Source: Propionibacterium acidifaciens DSM 21887 (lineage in GTDB: Bacteria > Actinomycetota > Actinomycetes > Propionibacteriales > Propionibacteriaceae). Taken from it: DNA of 64,000 nt. Shown piece by piece: positions 42,138 through 63,976 of this stretch (position 1 is its first letter; every line of letters starts with the position of its first letter). Location of the stretch: positions 1 through 64,000 of the forward strand of contig NZ_AUFR01000010.1 in NCBI RefSeq assembly GCF_000426605.1. Reading direction: 5' to 3'. The position numbers and the translations under genes were made by a program. Under the pieces are notes generated by a model that did no database searches, was not told where the DNA came from, and worked only from the letters and a program-made list of their open reading frames with translations.

Positions 42138-42398
42138 GGGATTCCTTTCACTGGGGAATCGCCACTGGCATGGACGCCCGTCAGAACCGGTCTTCGATCG
42201 AGGACGCCGGGACGGGCCCGGGATCCACCACCGAGGACCGAGGGCTGATCGTGGCGGCCATGACGGCGGCGTCATAGGGGTGCGCGTCGGGCGCACCGGG
42301 TCAAGGCTAGCCGACGCACCCGGATTCCACCTATTCGGGCACCGCTCCGCGCGCCGCGGGGCCCGTTCCGACCCGGACGGACGCGGGCCCGGACGGAC

Positions 42399-56813: not shown

Positions 56814-59639
56814 CTACTTGTCCCTCTCCTTCTCGACCATCTCGTGGGTCTCGATCTGGTCGCCGACGCGGATGTCGGAGTAGCCCAGCGTGAGGCCGCA
56901 CTCGAAGCCCTCGCGGACCTCGGTGACGTCGTCCTTCTCCCGACGCAGCGAGTTGATCGAGGTCTCGGCGACGACGACGCCGTCGCGCACCAGGCGCGCC
57001 GTGGCGTTGCGCCGGATGATGCCGTCGAGCACCATGCAGCCGGCGATGTTGCCCACCTTGGAGGAGTGGAAGATCTCGCGGATCTCGGCCGTGCCGAGCG
57101 TCCTCTCCTCGTAGACCGGCTTGAGCATGCCCTTGAGGGCGGCCTCGATCTCGTCGATCGCGTCGTAGATGACCGTGTAGTAGCGCACGTCGACGTTGTC
57201 CTGGTCGGCCATGCGGGCGGCCTGGACGGTCGGACGTACGTTGAAGCCGATGATGACGGCGTGCGGCTCGGACGCGGCCGCCAGCGTGACATTGGTCTCG
57301 GTGATGGCGCCGACGCCGCGGTCGATGACGCGCAGGTCGACCTCGTTGCCCACGTCGATCTGGCTGAGCGAGTCCTCCAGCGCCTCGACCGAGCCGGCCG
57401 AATCGCCCTTGAGGATGAGCAGCAGCTCGTTGGTCTCGCCCTTCTCCATCTGCTCGAACAGCTCGTCGAGCGTGCGACGGCGGCTCGACGCGGCCTGCTG
57501 GGCGGCGCGGATGCGGGCCTCGCGCTTCTCGGCGATCTGGCGGGCCATGCGGTCGTCCTCGACGACCAGGAAGTTGTCGCCGGCGCCGGGGACGCTGGTC
57601 AGGCCGAGCACCTGGACCGGCATCGATGGCGTGGCCTCGTCGACCTGCTCGCCGTGGTCGTTGACGAGGGCGCGCACGCGGCCGTAGGCCGAGCCCGCGA
57701 CGATCGAGTCCCCCTTGCGCAGGGTGCCGCGCTGGACCAGGGCGGTGGCCACGGGACCGCGGCCCTTGTCGAGGTGGGCCTCGATGGCGACGCCCTGGGC
57801 GTCCATGTCGGGATTGGCCCGCAGGTCCAGGGCGGCGTCGGCGGTGAGGACGATGGCCTGCAGCAGGTCGTCCAGGCCCTGACCGGTGACGGCCGAGACG
57901 TCGACGAACATGGTGTCGCCGCCGTACTCCTCGGGGACCAGCTCGAACTCGGTCAGCTGACCGCGCACCTTGGTGGGGTCGGCGCCGGGCTTGTCGATCT
58001 TGTTCACCGCGACGACGATCGGCACATCGGCGGCCTTCGCGTGGTTGAGGGCCTCGATGGTCTGGGGCATGACGCCGTCATCGGCCGCGACGACGAGCAC
58101 CGCGATGTCGGTGGACTTGGCGCCGCGGGCCCGCATGGCGGTGAAGGCCTCGTGACCGGGGGTGTCGATGAAGGTGATCGGACGGTCCTCGCCGTCGACC
58201 TCCGCCTGCACCTGGTAGGCGCCGATCGACTGGGTGATGCCGCCGGCCTCGCCCTCGACGACGTGCGTGTGGCGCAGCGCGTCGAGCAGCTTCGTCTTGC
58301 CGTGGTCGACGTGGCCCATGACGGTGACGACCGGGGGGCGCGGGGCGAGGTCGGACTCGTCGCCTTCGTCCTCGCCGAACTCCAGGTCGAAGCTCTCCAG
58401 GAGCTCGCGGTCCTCGTCCTCGGGCGAGACCACGTCGATGGTGTAGTTCAGCTCGGCGCCGAGGACCTCGAGGGTCTCGTCGGGGACCGACTGGGTGGCC
58501 GTGATCATCTCGCCCAGATTGAACAGGACCTGCACGAGGGCGGCCGGATCGGCGCCGATCTTCTCGGCGAGATCGGTCAACGAGGAGCCGCGGCGCAGCC
58601 GAACGGTCTCGCCATTGCCCTGCTTGATGCGCACGCCGCCGATCGTCGGCGCCTGCATCTCGTCGAACTCCTGCCTGCGCTGCTTGCGGCTCTTGCGACC
58701 GCGGCGGTTCCCGCCGCCGCGCCCGAAGGCGCCCTGCGTGCCGGAGCCGCCACGGCCGCCACGGCCGCCGCGACCGCCGCCGAGGGGCACGCCCATGCCG
58801 GGGCCGCCGCGGAAGCCGCCGCCACCGCGGCCGGGGCCGCCGCTGCCGCGCCCGCGACCGCCGCCGCGGGTGGAGCGTGAGCCGGCCGGGGCCAGCTGGG
58901 AGTTGTGACGCTTGGGCATCATCGCCGGGTTGGGGCGGGGCAGACCGCCGGTGGCGCCGGGACGGGGCGCGTGCGGCCGGGCGCCCTCGGCGGAACGGCC
59001 CTGGCCGCGGCGCTGCTGACCCATCCCCTGGGACTGGCTGAACGGGTTGTTCCCGGGACGCGGGGCACCGCCGCGGCGGCCGCCGCGACCGGTGGGCAGG
59101 CCGCCGGTCGCCCCCGCGCGGGAACCCCCGGGGCGCGGGCCGGGACGGGCGCCGGAGCCCCGACCGGGACGCGGCGCGGGGGCGGCCGGGCGCGGGCCGG
59201 GGGTCGGGCGGGCGCCGGAACGGGCCGGGGCGCCGGGGCGCGGAGCCGGACCGGAGGCGGGCGCCGACGGCGAGGCGGAGCCCTGGGCCCTGCCGCCAGG
59301 ACGCGGGCGGGCGCCCGGCTTGGGGGCGCCGGAGGGCGCGGCCGGCTTCGGGGCGCCGGGACGGGCCGCAGGACGCGCGGCGGGTGCGGACGAGCCCACC
59401 GTCGGCGCGGACGAGCGCGCGGGCCGGGCCTCCGCGGCCGGCTTGGCGGCGGACGACGAATCGCCATCGCCCCCCGTGCGCTCGGACCGGACCTTCTCGG
59501 TCACCCTGCGCACCACGGGGGCTTCAATGGTCGACGAGGCGGACCGGACGAACTCGCCCATGTCCTTCAGCTTCGCCAGAAGTTCTTTGCTTTCGAGTCC
59601 GAGCTCCTTGGCGAGCTCGTAGACGCGGACCTTGGCCAC
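56814..59639 (-). CDS. infB: translation initiation factor IF-2
   Basis: This 941-aa factor starts with an IF2_N segment ([21 protein letters not shown]). A very Pro/Ala/Gly/Arg-rich linker, including RGG-like repeats, fills about residues 75-330, and a second IF2_N motif lies at 335-400. The GTPase domain is intact: [23 protein letters not shown] and [11 protein letters not shown]-terminal domains include [22 protein letters not shown]. The start is GTG 59639 with AAGGAGA 5 bp upstream. The linker is longer and more Gly/Arg-rich than usual. Its upstream gene ylxR is 244 bp away, so infB probably has its own promoter. Confidence 0.96.
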
Positions 59640-59783
59640 TACTCTCCTTCAGGTCCGGGCGTCCGCCAGGACCGGTTAGTCGTCGGTTGTGCTCATTGCT
59701 GCGTACTCATCGAGTGGTCATGAGCGTTAGCCCACTTTCTGAAGATCACTGGGAACACACCGCACCTCACGGCACGAATGAAC

Positions 59784-59802
59784 GCGCGCCGCAATGGCGC
59801 GC
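59784..59802 (-). terminator. small hairpin between ylxR and infB
   Basis: GCGCGCC (59784-59790) and GGCGCGC (59796-59802) form a 7-bp stem with a 5-nt loop, flanked by direct CACGAAT repeats. It lies in the 244-bp gap before infB and may be a terminator or attenuator element. The gap is less GC-rich near 59690-59770, which would suit an infB promoter. Confidence 0.4.
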
Positions 59803-59883
59803 ACGAATCAGTCTACTCCGCGGCACCCCTCGCAGACCAACCGGTGACGGGCGTCGACGACCGCGCGGACGCCGTCCGCGGCG

Positions 59884-60129
59884 CTACTCGAACGGAGGCC
59901 GGTCGATCTCGTCGGGGCGCACGGGGGCGCGCAGGGCGCGGGCGAATCCTCCGCGCAGCGCCCCGTCCCAGCACCGGCGGTCCGGATGCACCCAGACGCC
60001 CCGCCCGGGCGCACCACCGGCCTCGTCGAGCACCAGCCCCCGGTCGGTGCGCACGTACCGGCGCAGCGCGGACCGCTCGTCGGTGCGGCGGCAGCCGACG
60101 CAGGTGCGGATCGGACGGGAGGCGCTCAC
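59884..60129 (-). CDS. ylxR: YlxR family protein (DUF448)
   Basis: This 81-aa protein has the YlxR core RPIRTCVGCRRTDERSALRRYV and GRGVWVHPDRRCWDGALRGG, then a basic helix. YlxR genes sit between nusA and infB almost everywhere; the protein binds RNA and affects expression of nearby genes. Here its neighbour on the nusA side is an opposite-strand decayed module. The start is GTG 60129. Confidence 0.92.
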   Translation of the reverse strand: MSASRPIRTCVGCRRTDERSALRRYVRTDRGLVLDEAGGAPGRGVWVHPDRRCWDGALRGGFARALRAPVRPDEIDRPPFE

Positions 60130-60189
60130 CCGGTCAGGATAGCCGGGGCCGCCGCCGGGCCCCGCCCGGAGTCGACCCGTCCCCCATCA

Positions 60190-60687
60190 ACCCACTGCTT
60201 CGGCGGCAAGGAGGGCCTGTTCCGGCAGGCGATGGAGATCCCCGTCGAGCCGCAGGAGGTCCTCGCCCGCTTCGAGGCGATCGGCACGGCCGACGAACTG
60301 CCCGAGGTGATCGTGAGGGCCTTCGTCGACATCTGGGAGAGCCCGCGCAGCGGGCCCCAGATGAGGGCCCTCCTGCGCCGCGCCCTCGAGGACCCCGAGC
60401 GCTTCGGCGCCCTGGTCGACTTCCTCTCGACGGCGGCCGTCGAACCCGTCTCGGCGCGCCTCGAGGGCCTCTCCCCCCAGCAGGCCCGGCTGCGCCTGAC
60501 CCTCGTCGCCTCGCACCTGCTGGGCACGGTCGTCATCCGCGGGCTCATGGGTGTGGAGCCGCCGGCGGGTCTGGACGCCGAACGACTCGTCGAGCTGCCC
60601 GAGCCGGCCATCCGGGCCGACCTGGCGCTCGGCGCCCCACCGAAGGACGGTCACCGGGCCCGTCCGGAGGACGACCATGGGCGCTGA
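60190..60687 (+). pseudogene. TetR-family regulator remnant, DNA-binding half missing
   Basis: From 60190 the frame reads HCFGGKEGLFRQAMEIPVEP, the sequence that follows the recognition helix of TetR regulators. A helical ligand-binding part (VIVRAFVDIWESP, LLRRALEDPERF, LVASHLLGTVVIRGLMGVEP) continues to the stop. The expected HTH before it is absent, and the GGK region is preceded by out-of-frame sequence instead. Its ATG-initiated open frame upstream is antisense to ylxR. The protein, if made, could not bind DNA. It overlaps the ATPase fragment that follows, as in TetR-ABC operons. Confidence 0.8.
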
Positions 60688-60770
60688 CACGGTGATCCTC
60701 GCACGCGGGCTGGTCAAGCGGTTCGGAGCCACCATCGCCCTCGCCGGCCCCGACCTGGCGGTCGGGGCCG
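60677..60770 (+). pseudogene. ABC transporter ATPase, first 30 residues only
   Basis: ATG 60677 has GGAGG 6 bp upstream and opens the start of an ABC ATPase (ILARGLVKRFGATIALAGPDL). The Walker A region and everything after it are missing. The reading continues into the permease gene in the wrong frame. A deletion of roughly 900 bp relative to a normal ATPase gene is implied. Confidence 0.75.
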
Positions 60771-60773
60771 GGG

Positions 60774-62345
60774 GTGCGGCCGCTGCTCGTGATGACGCTG
60801 CGCCGGGACGTCCGGGGCACCGCGCCCTGGATCGTCCTCGTCGGCACCCCGTCGGCGAGCTCGGCCGCCGCCCGCCGGTGGTCTTACCGACTGCCGAGGA
60901 CCGCGCGGCGCTGGCCGTGGCCATGTCCTCCGATCCGGCGATCGACCTGGTCCTCGGGCCGGCCCGTGACCTGATGACCGTCGACGGCTCCACCGCCTGG
61001 CGGTCCGGGACGCTCGGCTCCCTGCTGTCCGGTCTCATGGCGGTCCTGCTCGTCGCGCGCGACACCCGCGAGGATGAGCGAGGATGAGACTGCAGGCGCG
61101 CCGAGCCCGTCGCCTCGGGCGTCATCGGCCGTCGGAGCCGGCTGCTCGTGCCGATTGTCCTGCTGGTTGTCCTGCTGGTCCTGTTCGCGACCGCGCTCGG
61201 CACGTTCTGCTTCGCGCTCACCCGCGCGTTCGGCGGCGGGGCCGTCCCGACGCTCGTCCCGGCGGCGACCTTCGCGGTCTCCGCGCTGGTCTTCGGCGCG
61301 CTCACCGCCCAGTTCGGCGCGGACGCGCACGCCGCCGGATCCCGCGCGTTCGGCGGCCCGGGCGCTCTACGTCGTCCGGGGCTGCCTCGACGCGAACGAC
61401 GCGCCAGACCGGACGCAGTGGCTCACCCCGTTCGGCCGGTTCGAGCGGACCGGTCCGGCCGTCGAGAACGACCCGCTGCCGCTGCTCGCGGCGCTCGGGC
61501 TGACGGCCGCGCTGCTCGTCGCGGCCCTGGCCGCCGCCGAGCACCGGGACCTCAGCGGCGGCATCGTCCCTCCCCGACCGGTCCCGCCCACGCGCCGCAC
61601 TGGGCCGTCCTGGCCCTGACCTGGCGCCTCCACAGCGCGCTGGGCCGGTGGGGCGCCGCCTTCGCCGTGCTCGACCTCACCATGGGCTCGCCGGGCACCT
61701 CGGTCGGCTCGATCCTGACCGGACGACCCGGTGGTCTCCGCCCTCCTCGTCTCCGGCCGGATGGACGAGGACGAGCTGTCGTCCGCGTTCATCGTCACGA
61801 CTGGGCAGCTGCTGGACGTCGTCGCCGCGGTCCTGGGGACGCAGATCGTCATGCGCGTCCGCGCCGAGGAGCTCGACCGCCGCGCGGAACCGCTGCTGGC
61901 CGGCCCGCTGCGCCGCGACCGCTACCTCGCGCCGTCCTCGTGGCGCTCGGCTCGTCCGGAGGCGCGATGCTCGTCGCCGACGCCGGCATCGGCCTGGTGA
62001 ACGCGCTCGGGGGCACGGCCATCACGTTCGGCGAGACCCTGGAACAGGCCGCCTGCACGGTCCCGGCCGTCTGGCTGCTCGTCGGGCTCGCGACGGCGGT
62101 CGTCGCCACGCGTCCGACGCTGCGCCCCCTCGGAGGGGCGGGCATCGTGGCGACCTTCGGCATCACCCTGCTGGGCCCGACGTTCAGGTTCCCGGACCAA
62201 GCGATGTCGATCAGCCCCATAGGCCACGTACCGAACATCACCGCGGACGACGCCCCGTGGACCGGGCTCCTCGTCGTCGGCGGCATCGCGATGGCCCCTG
62301 CTCGCAGTCGGCTTCGTCGGTTTCGAGCGACGCGACGTGCGATGA
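60774..62345 (+). pseudogene. ABC exporter permease (polyketide-antibiotic-exporter-like), multiply frameshifted
   Basis: Successive blocks of one roughly 520-aa permease are readable but switch frame. RPLLVMTLRRDVRGTAPW opens it near 60774, and VLPTAEDRAALAVAMSSDP follows in another frame from about 60880. GVIGRRSRLLVPIVLLVV continues to 61350, ALYVVRGCLDANDAPDRTQW to about 61600, and APHWAVLALTWRLH to 61730. VVSALLVSGRMDEDELSSAF runs to about 61940 and VADAGIGLVNALGGTAITFG to 62297. The last segment GFVGFERRDVR ends at 62345. At least five frame changes plus an in-frame stop near 61085 exclude function. Order and total span match the antibiotic-exporter permease family. It is followed by a strong hairpin. 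Confidence 0.85.
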
Positions 62346-62347
62346 GA

Positions 62348-62380
62348 CCCCTGGGCGGCGCGACGGGCGCCGCCCAGGGG
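62348..62380 (+). terminator. hairpin after the decayed permease
   Basis: Perfect 14-bp arms 62348-62361 and 62367-62380 with a 5-nt loop begin 2 bp after the permease stop at 62345. The terminator remained intact although the gene decayed. Confidence 0.8.
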
Positions 62381-62392
62381 GTTAAGTGAAGC

Positions 62393-62424
62393 GGCTGGGA
62401 TCCCCACCCCCTGGGATCCCAGCC
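62393..62424 (-). terminator. hairpin downstream of nusA
   Basis: Perfect 12-bp arms 62393-62404 and 62413-62424 with an 8-nt loop lie 85 bp after the nusA stop on the reverse strand. Together with the adjacent hairpin at 62348-62380 it would end transcription of nusA before reaching ylxR. Confidence 0.7.
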
Positions 62425-62508
62425 TTCGGTGCGAGAGCGGGAGGATGATTCACCCCTCAACCGGTCACTCGCGACCTATTAGAAACCTACCACACCGATA
62501 TGCCCGGG

Positions 62509-63501
62509 TCAACTGGCTGTTACAGAGGGTGAATCGGGGGTGATATCGGGCTTGATGTCGATCCTCCAGCCGGTGAGGCGCGCGGCGAGCCGGACGTTCT
62601 GCCCCTCCCTGCCGATCGCCAGGGAGAGCTGGTAGTCCGGCACGATGACGCGCACCGTGCGGGCCGCCCGGTCGATGATCTGGACGGTGACCGCCTTGGC
62701 GGGGCTCAGCGAGTTGCCGACGTACACGGCGGGGTCCTCGGACCAGTCGACGATGTCGATCTTCTCCTCGTTCAGCTCGTGCATGACGGCGCGCACCCGC
62801 TGGCCCATCGGACCGATGCAGGCGCCCTTGGCCGAGACGTCGGGGTTGTGCGAGACGACCGCGATCTTCGAGCGGTGGCCGGCCTCCCGGGCGATGCCCA
62901 TGATCTCCACGACGCCCTGCTCGACCTCGGGGACCTCGAGCTCGAAGAGCTTCTTCACGAGGTTCGGGTGGGTGCGGCTGACCATGACCCGGGGTCCGCG
63001 GGCCTCCATGCGCACGCTCACGACGTAAATGCGCAGGCGTTTGCCGTGCTCGTAGTTCTCGCCGGGGGTCTGCTCGGCCAGCGGCATGAAGCCCTCGGTC
63101 TCGCCCAGGTCCACGCGCACGGTCCTGCTGCCGCCGTCCTTCTGGACGACGCCGGTGAGGATGTCGCCCTCGGAGGCGCTGAACTTGCCGTACGTGCGCT
63201 CGTCCTCGGCCTCGCGCAGCCGCTGGAAGATCACCTGGCGGGCGGTCGAGGCGGCGACCCGGCCGAAGTCGGCGGGGGTGTCGTCGTATTCGCCGACGAC
63301 CTCACCGGCCTCGTCGCGCTCGGGGACCATGACCGAGGCCCTGCCGGAGCGACGGTCGAGCACGACCCGAGCGCCCGGCTTGGGGCTGCCGGTCTTCGTG
63401 TAGGCGTTGTAGAGCGCGTCCTCGATGGCGCGCACCAAGTAGTCGAAGGAGATGTCCTTCTCGTTGCCGATGGCCCTCAGGGCCGTCATGTCCACGTCCA
63501 T
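62509..63501 (-). CDS. nusA: transcription termination/antitermination factor NusA
   Basis: This 330-aa NusA has an RNA-polymerase-binding N-terminus (about 1-125, [27 protein letters not shown]) and an S1 domain (about 110-190, [15 protein letters not shown]). Two KH domains end with [24 protein letters not shown]. There are no C-terminal acidic repeats, as in actinobacteria. ATG 63501 has GAGGAGG upstream and starts 2 bp after the rimP stop. Downstream, where ylxR and infB usually follow, are two hairpins and an opposite-strand pseudogene module. Confidence 0.96.
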
Positions 63502-63502
63502 C

Positions 63503-63976
63503 TCAGACCTCCTCGTCCCTGCGGTTCAGCTCGACCTGGACCACGGCGCGGCGCACCGCGTCGAAGCCGAGGCGCCGACGACGCCCGTCGACGTCGAGTT
63601 CGGCGCCGGTGTCGTCGACGGCGCGGATCCGCCCGACGAAGCGCTCGCCCTCGACGGGGGTGATCCGGACCAGGCGGGAGACGTTGCGGCGCCAGTGCGC
63701 CGGGCGCTCGAGCGGCGCGGACACGCCGCGGGAGCCGACCTCGAGCGTGTAGGGATGCTCACCGATGGCGTCGGAGTCGTCGAGCGCGGCCGAGATGGCG
63801 CGCGTGGCCTCGGCGATGTCGTCGATGGTGGGACCGCGGCCGTCGGGACCGTCCCCGTCGAGCGCGATGCGCAGGACGCTGCGCCTGCCGGCGTTCACCA
63901 CGGTGAGATCGTCCAATTCGAGTCCGTGCGCGGCCACGATGGGCTCGAGCACGGCTACCAACGCTGATTCGTTCAC
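63503..63976 (-). CDS. rimP: ribosome maturation factor RimP
   Basis: This 157-aa protein is needed for 30S subunit maturation. The N-terminal domain reads LEPIVAAHGLELDDLTVVNAG; the segment YTLEVGSRGVSAPLERPAHWRRN is the characteristic RimP block. It has a C-terminal SH3-like domain. The start is GTG 63976, just inside the window edge; an AGGGCC-like ribosome site precedes it. It starts the rimP-nusA pair; nothing further upstream is visible. Confidence 0.93.
   Translation of the reverse strand: MNESALVAVLEPIVAAHGLELDDLTVVNAGRRSVLRIALDGDGPDGRGPTIDDIAEATRAISAALDDSDAIGEHPYTLEVGSRGVSAPLERPAHWRRNVSRLVRITPVEGERFVGRIRAVDDTGAELDVDGRRRRLGFDAVRRAVVQVELNRRDEEV

What the first reader, a model, noticed from the sequence alone, without database searches (positions are those of the whole stretch)
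60190..62345. Decayed TetR-ABC antibiotic-exporter module splits the nusA-ylxR-infB operon
rimP-nusA and ylxR-infB-rbfA-truB are normally contiguous. Here about 2.4 kb separates nusA from ylxR, holding a truncated TetR, a truncated ATPase and a permease with at least five frame changes, all on the opposite strand. Two intact hairpins between the module and nusA would end nusA transcripts. infB must therefore be driven from elsewhere.
Basis: partly seen in the sequence, partly recalled or inferred. Interest (0 to 1): 0.7.

Follow-up and report, generated by a model that had tools for sequence, protein, structure and literature searches.

The report
Dead drug-pump cassette between nusA and ylxR
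A broken drug-pump cassette sits inside a translation-gene operon of a Propionibacterium, probably at little cost because the genes beyond it appear to have their own promoters; the gene for initiation factor IF2 is preceded by a leader of three tiny coupled reading frames, kept across the class Actinomycetes, that I could not find described.

Summary
2,379 bp separate nusA from ylxR, filled by a decayed TetR-ATPase-permease cassette on the opposite strand. Propionibacterium australiense carries the same cassette with intact reading frames at the same site; two other species of the genus have no insert. The permease and ATPase are closest, among solved structures, to the M. tuberculosis multidrug exporter Rv1217c/Rv1218c. 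In the window the TetR operators and half of its helix-turn-helix, plus about 820 bp of ATPase, are deleted, and the permease has six frameshifting indels.

The implied harm to infB is probably overstated. In Propionibacteriaceae the nusA-ylxR junction exceeds 400 bp in 30 of 63 loci (rimP-nusA 0 of 61), with different genes inserted. Where the junction is open, ylxR nearly always has its own -10 box 5-8 nt before its start codon (32 of 37, against 7 of 37 where closed). The window keeps this box, and the deletion stops beside it. infB has a further promoter-like site of its own. Neither promoter has been measured.

Unexpected: infB is preceded by three mini-ORFs linked by ATGA overlaps, then a hairpin. 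137 of 152 distinct leaders hold such a chain (shuffles 0.8%); 0 of 24 loci from other classes do. It is not in Rfam, and limited literature searches found no description.

The parts
62509..63501 (-). nusA (330 aa), last gene of the rimP-nusA unit
   Evidence: ORF; homologous to NusA loci throughout Propionibacteriaceae
62393..62424 (.). hairpin B (12-bp perfect stem, loop part of CCCAGGGGGTGGGG), older than the module
   Evidence: 32 of 32 bases identical in P. australiense, compensated stem in G001 which has no module; loop motif once per genome, always here
62348..62380 (.). hairpin A (14-bp stem) just past the permease remnant, no T-run
   Evidence: fold -35.4 kcal/mol; not conserved in P. 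australiense
60771..62345 (+). permease pseudogene, relative of Rv1217c
   Evidence: aligned to the intact 541-aa permease of P. australiense; 11 indels, 6 frameshifting; intact relative matches PDB 8k1m Rv1217c, E 2.6e-58
60677..60770 (+). ATPase pseudogene, first ~30 codons only, rest deleted (about 820 bp)
   Evidence: alignment; intact relative matches Rv1218c, E 8.5e-100
60165..60676 (+). tetR pseudogene lacking promoter, both operators and the first ~54 codons
   Evidence: alignment; operator palindromes YCAACANNTGTTGA present only in P. australiense
60136..60141 (-). TATCCT, candidate -10 box of a leaderless ylxR promoter, 6 nt before the GTG start; the deletion begins at its outer edge
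   Evidence: TANNNT at 5-8 nt from an in-frame start in 41 of 86 loci, shuffled 0.5%; 32 of 37 with open junction against 7 of 37 with closed junction; deletion edge
59884..60129 (-). ylxR (81 aa)
   Evidence: ORF, conserved in relatives
59810..59840 (-). candidate infB promoter: -35 TTGGTC (59840-59835), 19-nt spacer, -10 TAGACT (59815-59810)
   Evidence: TTGNNN-N16-19-TANNNT upstream of the leader in 24 of 52 Propionibacteriaceae, shuffled 2.4%; TANNNT in 50 of 52
59676..59721 (-). three coupled mini-ORFs of the infB leader: MTTR* (59721-59707), MSTQQ* (59710-59693), MSTTDD* (59696-59676), joined by ATGA overlaps
   Evidence: chain of 3 or more in 137 of 152 distinct leaders against 0.76% of shuffles; one strong model hit per genome, at infB
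59652..59673 (-). hairpin between the last mini-ORF and the infB Shine-Dalgarno site
   Evidence: median z -1.6 over 134 leaders; U-A to C-G exchange at stem pair 3
56814..59639 (-). infB (IF2, 941 aa), GTG start, Shine-Dalgarno AAGGAG at 59649-59644
   Evidence: ORF; leader alignment

Best explanation
A TetR-regulated ABC exporter cassette of the Rv1218c/Rv1217c type entered the nusA-ylxR junction, on the opposite strand, in the common ancestor of this genome and P. australiense; its reading frames stayed open in P. australiense and it became a pseudogene here through two large deletions and at least six frameshifts (shown by comparison). The insertion was tolerated because the operon was already functionally divided at this point (inferred): ylxR has its own -10 box, placed so that transcripts would start at its GTG codon, and infB has a further promoter-like site behind ylxR. 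Both sites are shown as conserved sequence; transcription from them is inferred. Whatever its source, infB mRNA would carry a class-wide leader of three translationally coupled mini-ORFs and a hairpin, so IF2 synthesis is probably set at translation by a termination-reinitiation relay (architecture shown; translation and function inferred).
For: Intact reading frames, same site and orientation in P. australiense; empty site in G001 and G003. Decay pattern. Exporter identity of the intact copy. Junction opened repeatedly and selectively: 30 of 63 against 0 of 61, 4 of 53 and 2 of 28 at the neighbouring junctions, at least 8 changes on the nusA tree, at least 3 forced by well-supported branches, different inserted genes. 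ylxR -10 box associated with open junctions, Fisher p 6e-9 uncorrected for relatedness. infB promoter-like site. A WhiB7 ChIP peak lies upstream of infB in Mycobacterium abscessus (PMC10727445), which agrees with infB having its own regulated promoter in another family. Leader.
Against: No transcript or ribosome data were available; both promoters rest on motif conservation and the ylxR site lacks a clear -35 element. Read-through from nusA across 2.4 kb is not excluded, since the hairpins lack T-runs. The association of -10 box and open junction is partly phylogenetic. 15 of 152 leaders fall short of a chain of three under the strict overlap rule, some because they use TGATG or TAATG junctions instead.
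Confidence: 0.78

Rival explanations
1. The frameshifts are sequencing or assembly errors and the module is functional here, as it may be in P. australiense.
For: Draft assembly of 85 contigs; P. australiense has open frames at the same site.
Against: Two long deletions remove the tetR start with its operators and most of the ATPase; six frameshifting indels are spread over the permease; codon-position identity is flat.
Confidence: 0.03
2. infB is still transcribed from the rimP-nusA promoter by read-through across the antisense pseudogenes; the ylxR and infB -10 boxes are weak or chance.
For: No canonical terminator found between nusA and ylxR; ylxR site lacks a -35 element.
Against: Strong association of the ylxR -10 box with open junctions, shuffled rate 0.5%; infB promoter-like pattern 24 of 52 against 2.4%; conserved hairpin B at the end of nusA.
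Confidence: 0.15
3. The insertion damaged ylxR/infB expression and new compensatory promoters evolved afterwards in this lineage.
For: Open junctions have the box more often than closed ones.
Against: The ylxR -10 box and infB promoter-like site are present in G001 and G003, which have no insert, so they predate it.
Confidence: 0.07
4. The infB mini-ORFs are not translated; the conserved block is an RNA protein-binding or structural element.
For: Conserved hairpin with one covarying pair; some sequence conservation outside the frames.
Against: Distance between the last two ATGA sites is 2 mod 3 in 133 of 150 with several lengths; where the first ATG is lost, an in-frame start lies upstream, in one family behind a good Shine-Dalgarno site.
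Confidence: 0.2

Closest known systems
Rv1219c-Rv1218c-Rv1217c multidrug ABC exporter locus of Mycobacterium tuberculosis
   Same: tetR, ATPase and ~540-aa permease in one cassette; permease and ATPase of the intact P. australiense copy are closest to Rv1217c and Rv1218c among solved structures
   Different: TetR is not closest to Rv1219c; in the window all three genes are broken; substrate unknown
uORF-controlled whiB7/wblC leader of actinobacteria
   Same: leader translation ahead of a translation-related gene in actinobacteria (PMC10727445, PMC7157823)
   Different: whiB7 uses an upstream ORF and an intrinsic terminator; infB has three mini-ORFs coupled by ATGA overlaps and no T-run terminator
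Termination-reinitiation coupling at ATGA/TGATG overlaps
   Same: identical overlap type, shown experimentally for gene pairs (PMC6728339)
   Different: here the coupled units are a few codons long and stand in a row before a single gene
infC (IF3) start-codon autoregulation
   Same: translation factor gene possibly controlled by the factor it encodes (own knowledge)
   Different: no unusual start codon at infB; mini-ORF relay instead; factor dependence untested

Membership tests
Rv1218c/Rv1217c-type multidrug ABC exporter (intact copy in P. australiense) | permease homologous over full length to Rv1217c | tested here: met
   E 2.6e-58, residues 15-540
Rv1218c/Rv1217c-type multidrug ABC exporter (intact copy in P. 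australiense) | ATPase homologous over full length to Rv1218c | tested here: met
   E 8.5e-100, next family 2.3e-50; PF00005
Rv1218c/Rv1217c-type multidrug ABC exporter (intact copy in P. australiense) | TetR regulator orthologous to Rv1219c | tested here: inconclusive
   TetR_N and TetR_C_16; Rv1219c (4nn1, identity recalled) matches only in the DNA-binding part, best match is another TetR
Rv1218c/Rv1217c-type multidrug ABC exporter (intact copy in P. australiense) | drug efflux activity | not testable with these tools
   needs a transport assay in a laboratory strain
functional exporter in the window itself | open reading frames for ATPase and permease | tested here: not met
   ATPase mostly deleted, permease with six frameshifting indels
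translationally coupled uORF leader | overlapping stop/start codons in a row upstream of the gene | tested here: met
   137 of 152 distinct leaders with three or more, shuffles 0.76%
translationally coupled uORF leader | frame kept when lengths change | tested here: met
   133 of 150 at 2 mod 3
translationally coupled uORF leader | translation of the mini-ORFs and effect on infB | not testable with these tools
   needs ribosome profiling and reporter fusions
known Rfam RNA family | match to any of 4227 families | tested here: not met
   no match up to E 1 in 59600-62600

The most novel reading that the evidence does not exclude
Across the class Actinomycetes the gene for initiation factor IF2 is controlled by an undescribed leader: a relay of three mini-ORFs coupled by ATGA overlaps and followed by a hairpin, which senses initiation or recycling capacity (for example IF2 itself) through reinitiation or short-peptidyl-tRNA drop-off. 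Together with local promoters at ylxR and infB this makes infB autonomous and turns the nusA-ylxR junction into a tolerated landing site for foreign genes.
Probability: 0.4. Interest if true: 0.85.

Novelty: new variant of a known kind. Interest (0 to 1): 0.55.

Why it matters
The decayed cassette alone is ordinary genome decay. What matters is why it could land there: in this family the nusA-infB operon is repeatedly cut at one junction, and the cut goes with a promoter at the next gene. That gives a concrete case of how an old, widely shared operon comes apart. The infB leader, if translated, would offer a testable route by which actinobacteria, including Streptomyces and mycobacteria, adjust IF2, a factor whose own regulation is little known.

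Tried and rejected
Plasmid collection for the module: no match. Rfam on the region: none. Canonical terminator and strict sigma-70 scans: none. TetR control of ylxR in P. australiense was considered because operators lie between ylxR and tetR; they are about 110-165 bp upstream of the ylxR -10 box, so I did not claim it. Hairpin B as part of the module: rejected, present in G001 without module. Whole-alignment RNAalifold of the leader gave only two pairs because the 5' arm misaligned over variable lengths; stem pairs were tallied per sequence instead. A first ylxR-start scan by regular expression reached only 29 loci and was replaced by a tblastn-anchored scan. Literature searches for an infB uORF leader found none; the library lacks most subscription papers, so absence is weak evidence. 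The window's species name (probably P. acidifaciens, from memory of relatives and genome size) was not tested.

Full report
Observation. The window lies in a 3.04-Mb draft genome of a Propionibacteriaceae. On the minus strand rimP (63503-63976) and nusA (62509-63501) are followed after 2,379 bp by ylxR (59884-60129) and infB (56814-59639). The 2.4 kb hold, on the plus strand, remnants of a tetR, an ABC ATPase and a permease.

Comparison within the genus. A DNA search of 57 genomes found that G002, identified as Propionibacterium australiense NML98A072 by its nusA locus, carries the same cassette at the same site with open frames: tetR 223 aa, ATPase 304 aa, permease 541 aa. G001 and G003, also of this genus, have nusA and ylxR 197 and 107 bp apart. 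On a nusA tree window and P. australiense are sisters with full SH-aLRT support. The cassette therefore entered before these two split, and decayed here. The P. australiense ATPase and permease are closest, among solved structures, to Rv1218c and Rv1217c; its TetR has TetR_N and TetR_C_16 domains but is not closest to Rv1219c. Whether the P. australiense copy exports anything is untested.

Decay. Against P. australiense the window lacks both operator palindromes (found only in P. australiense), the tetR start and about 54 codons, and about 820 bp of ATPase; the permease has 11 indels, 6 frameshifting. Identity by codon position is nearly flat in the permease but 0.88/0.85/0.69 in ylxR. This is a pseudogene set, not an assembly fault, though no reads were available.

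Hairpins. Hairpin B (62393-62424) is identical over 32 bases in P. australiense. In G001, which has no module, it recurs with changed but still paired stem bases and the same loop. The loop motif CCCAGGGGGTGGGG occurs exactly once in each of the three genomes, always here. It belongs to the end of nusA, not to the module. Hairpin A is not conserved. Neither has a T-run, so termination is possible but unproven.

The junction in the family. Among Propionibacteriaceae loci fetched mostly with NusA, the nusA-ylxR distance exceeds 400 bp in 30 of 63, against 0 of 61 for rimP-nusA, 4 of 53 for ylxR-infB and 2 of 28 for infB-rbfA. The inserted frames differ and most run against nusA: from their sequences I read a catalase, a DEAD-box helicase, a UvrA-like protein, an alpha-amylase-type enzyme, a VOC protein and a small secreted protein common in one clade (names by eye, not by family search). 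The tree needs at least 8 changes of state, at least 3 forced by well-supported branches. So the junction has been opened several times.

Why it is tolerated. In 41 of 86 distinct loci a TANNNT box lies 5-8 nt, most often 6, before an in-frame ylxR start (shuffled 0.5%). This spacing would start the transcript at or next to the start codon. The box is present in 32 of 37 loci with an open junction and 7 of 37 with a closed one (Fisher p 6e-9, not corrected for relatedness). The window has TATCCT at 60136-60141, and the large deletion starts at its outer edge. A second promoter-like site, TTGGTC-N19-TAGACT (59840-59810), lies between ylxR and infB; the full pattern occurs in 24 of 52 family leaders (shuffled 2.4%) and TANNNT in 50 of 52. 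G001 and G003 have both sites, so they predate the insertion. In Mycobacterium abscessus a WhiB7 ChIP peak lies upstream of infB (PMC10727445), in agreement with a separate infB promoter elsewhere in the class. Transcription from these sites in this family has not been measured.

The infB leader. The four Propionibacterium species share a block of about 115 nt before infB that is far better conserved than its surroundings. It encodes three mini-ORFs joined by ATGA overlaps (window: MTTR, MSTQQ, MSTTDD), then a hairpin, a Shine-Dalgarno site and the GTG start. The same arrangement stands before infB across the class: 137 of 152 distinct leaders contain a chain of three or more, against 0.76% of dinucleotide shuffles, and several of the 15 others use TGATG or TAATG junctions. 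Without assuming frames, the distance between the last two ATGA sites is 2 mod 3 in 133 of 150. In families where the first ATG is lost an in-frame start lies upstream, in one family as GTG behind AAGGAG. None of 24 loci from other classes of the phylum has such a chain. A model of the leader finds one strong hit in each of 8 genomes, at infB (E 1.6e-27 to 6.5e-8), the next hits being weak (E 0.008 or more). The stem after the mini-ORFs varies compatibly, with U-A to C-G exchange at one pair. It is not in Rfam and no paper found in the held library describes it.

Mechanism. Shown: cassette, decay, recurrence of the split, conserved boxes, leader architecture. Inferred: ylxR and infB are transcribed locally; ribosomes load at mini-ORF 1 and pass by termination-reinitiation, a process demonstrated for ATGA gene overlaps (PMC6728339), to the infB start. 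Repeated initiation makes the relay a plausible sensor of initiation capacity, possibly of IF2 itself; from memory, IF1 and IF2 stimulate drop-off of short peptidyl-tRNAs in E. coli, which would fit, but nothing here tests it.

Verdict. The assigned finding is real but in itself ordinary: a pseudogene cassette at a junction that its family tolerates being cut. The leader uncovered on the way is the part of lasting interest.

Noticed in passing
window 59637-59739 (minus); same position before infB in relatives, e.g. L025:3763-3865, L137, L216: Class-wide infB leader with three ATGA-coupled mini-ORFs and a hairpin, absent from Rfam; function untested.
   Followed up: partly
window 62484-62512 (minus) and hairpin B 62393-62424: TTGACC-N17-TAGGTT, conserved in P. 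australiense (TAGTTT), starting at the nusA stop and pointing at hairpin B: possible small RNA or antisense promoter into the module.
   Followed up: no
L025:4376-4432: Two palindromes (CCAACAAGTGTTGA, TCAACACCTGTTGA) between ylxR and tetR in P. australiense, found nowhere else in four genomes: likely TetR operators.
   Followed up: partly
L037, L040, L041, L044, L050, L070, L076 between nusA and ylxR: Unrelated genes occupy the same junction in other Propionibacteriaceae; a small secreted protein gene (MNSKQRIGLAIGGG...) recurs there in the Propionicimonas/Micropruina clade.
   Followed up: partly
L066 and L071 between ylxR and infB: In a Microlunatus and one MAG the ylxR-infB junction itself appears opened by about 3.5-4 kb, possibly through ylxR hits being misplaced.
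   Followed up: no
window 42186-42242 (minus): Actino-pnp RNA (RF01688), 55 bits, an expected element.
   Followed up: no
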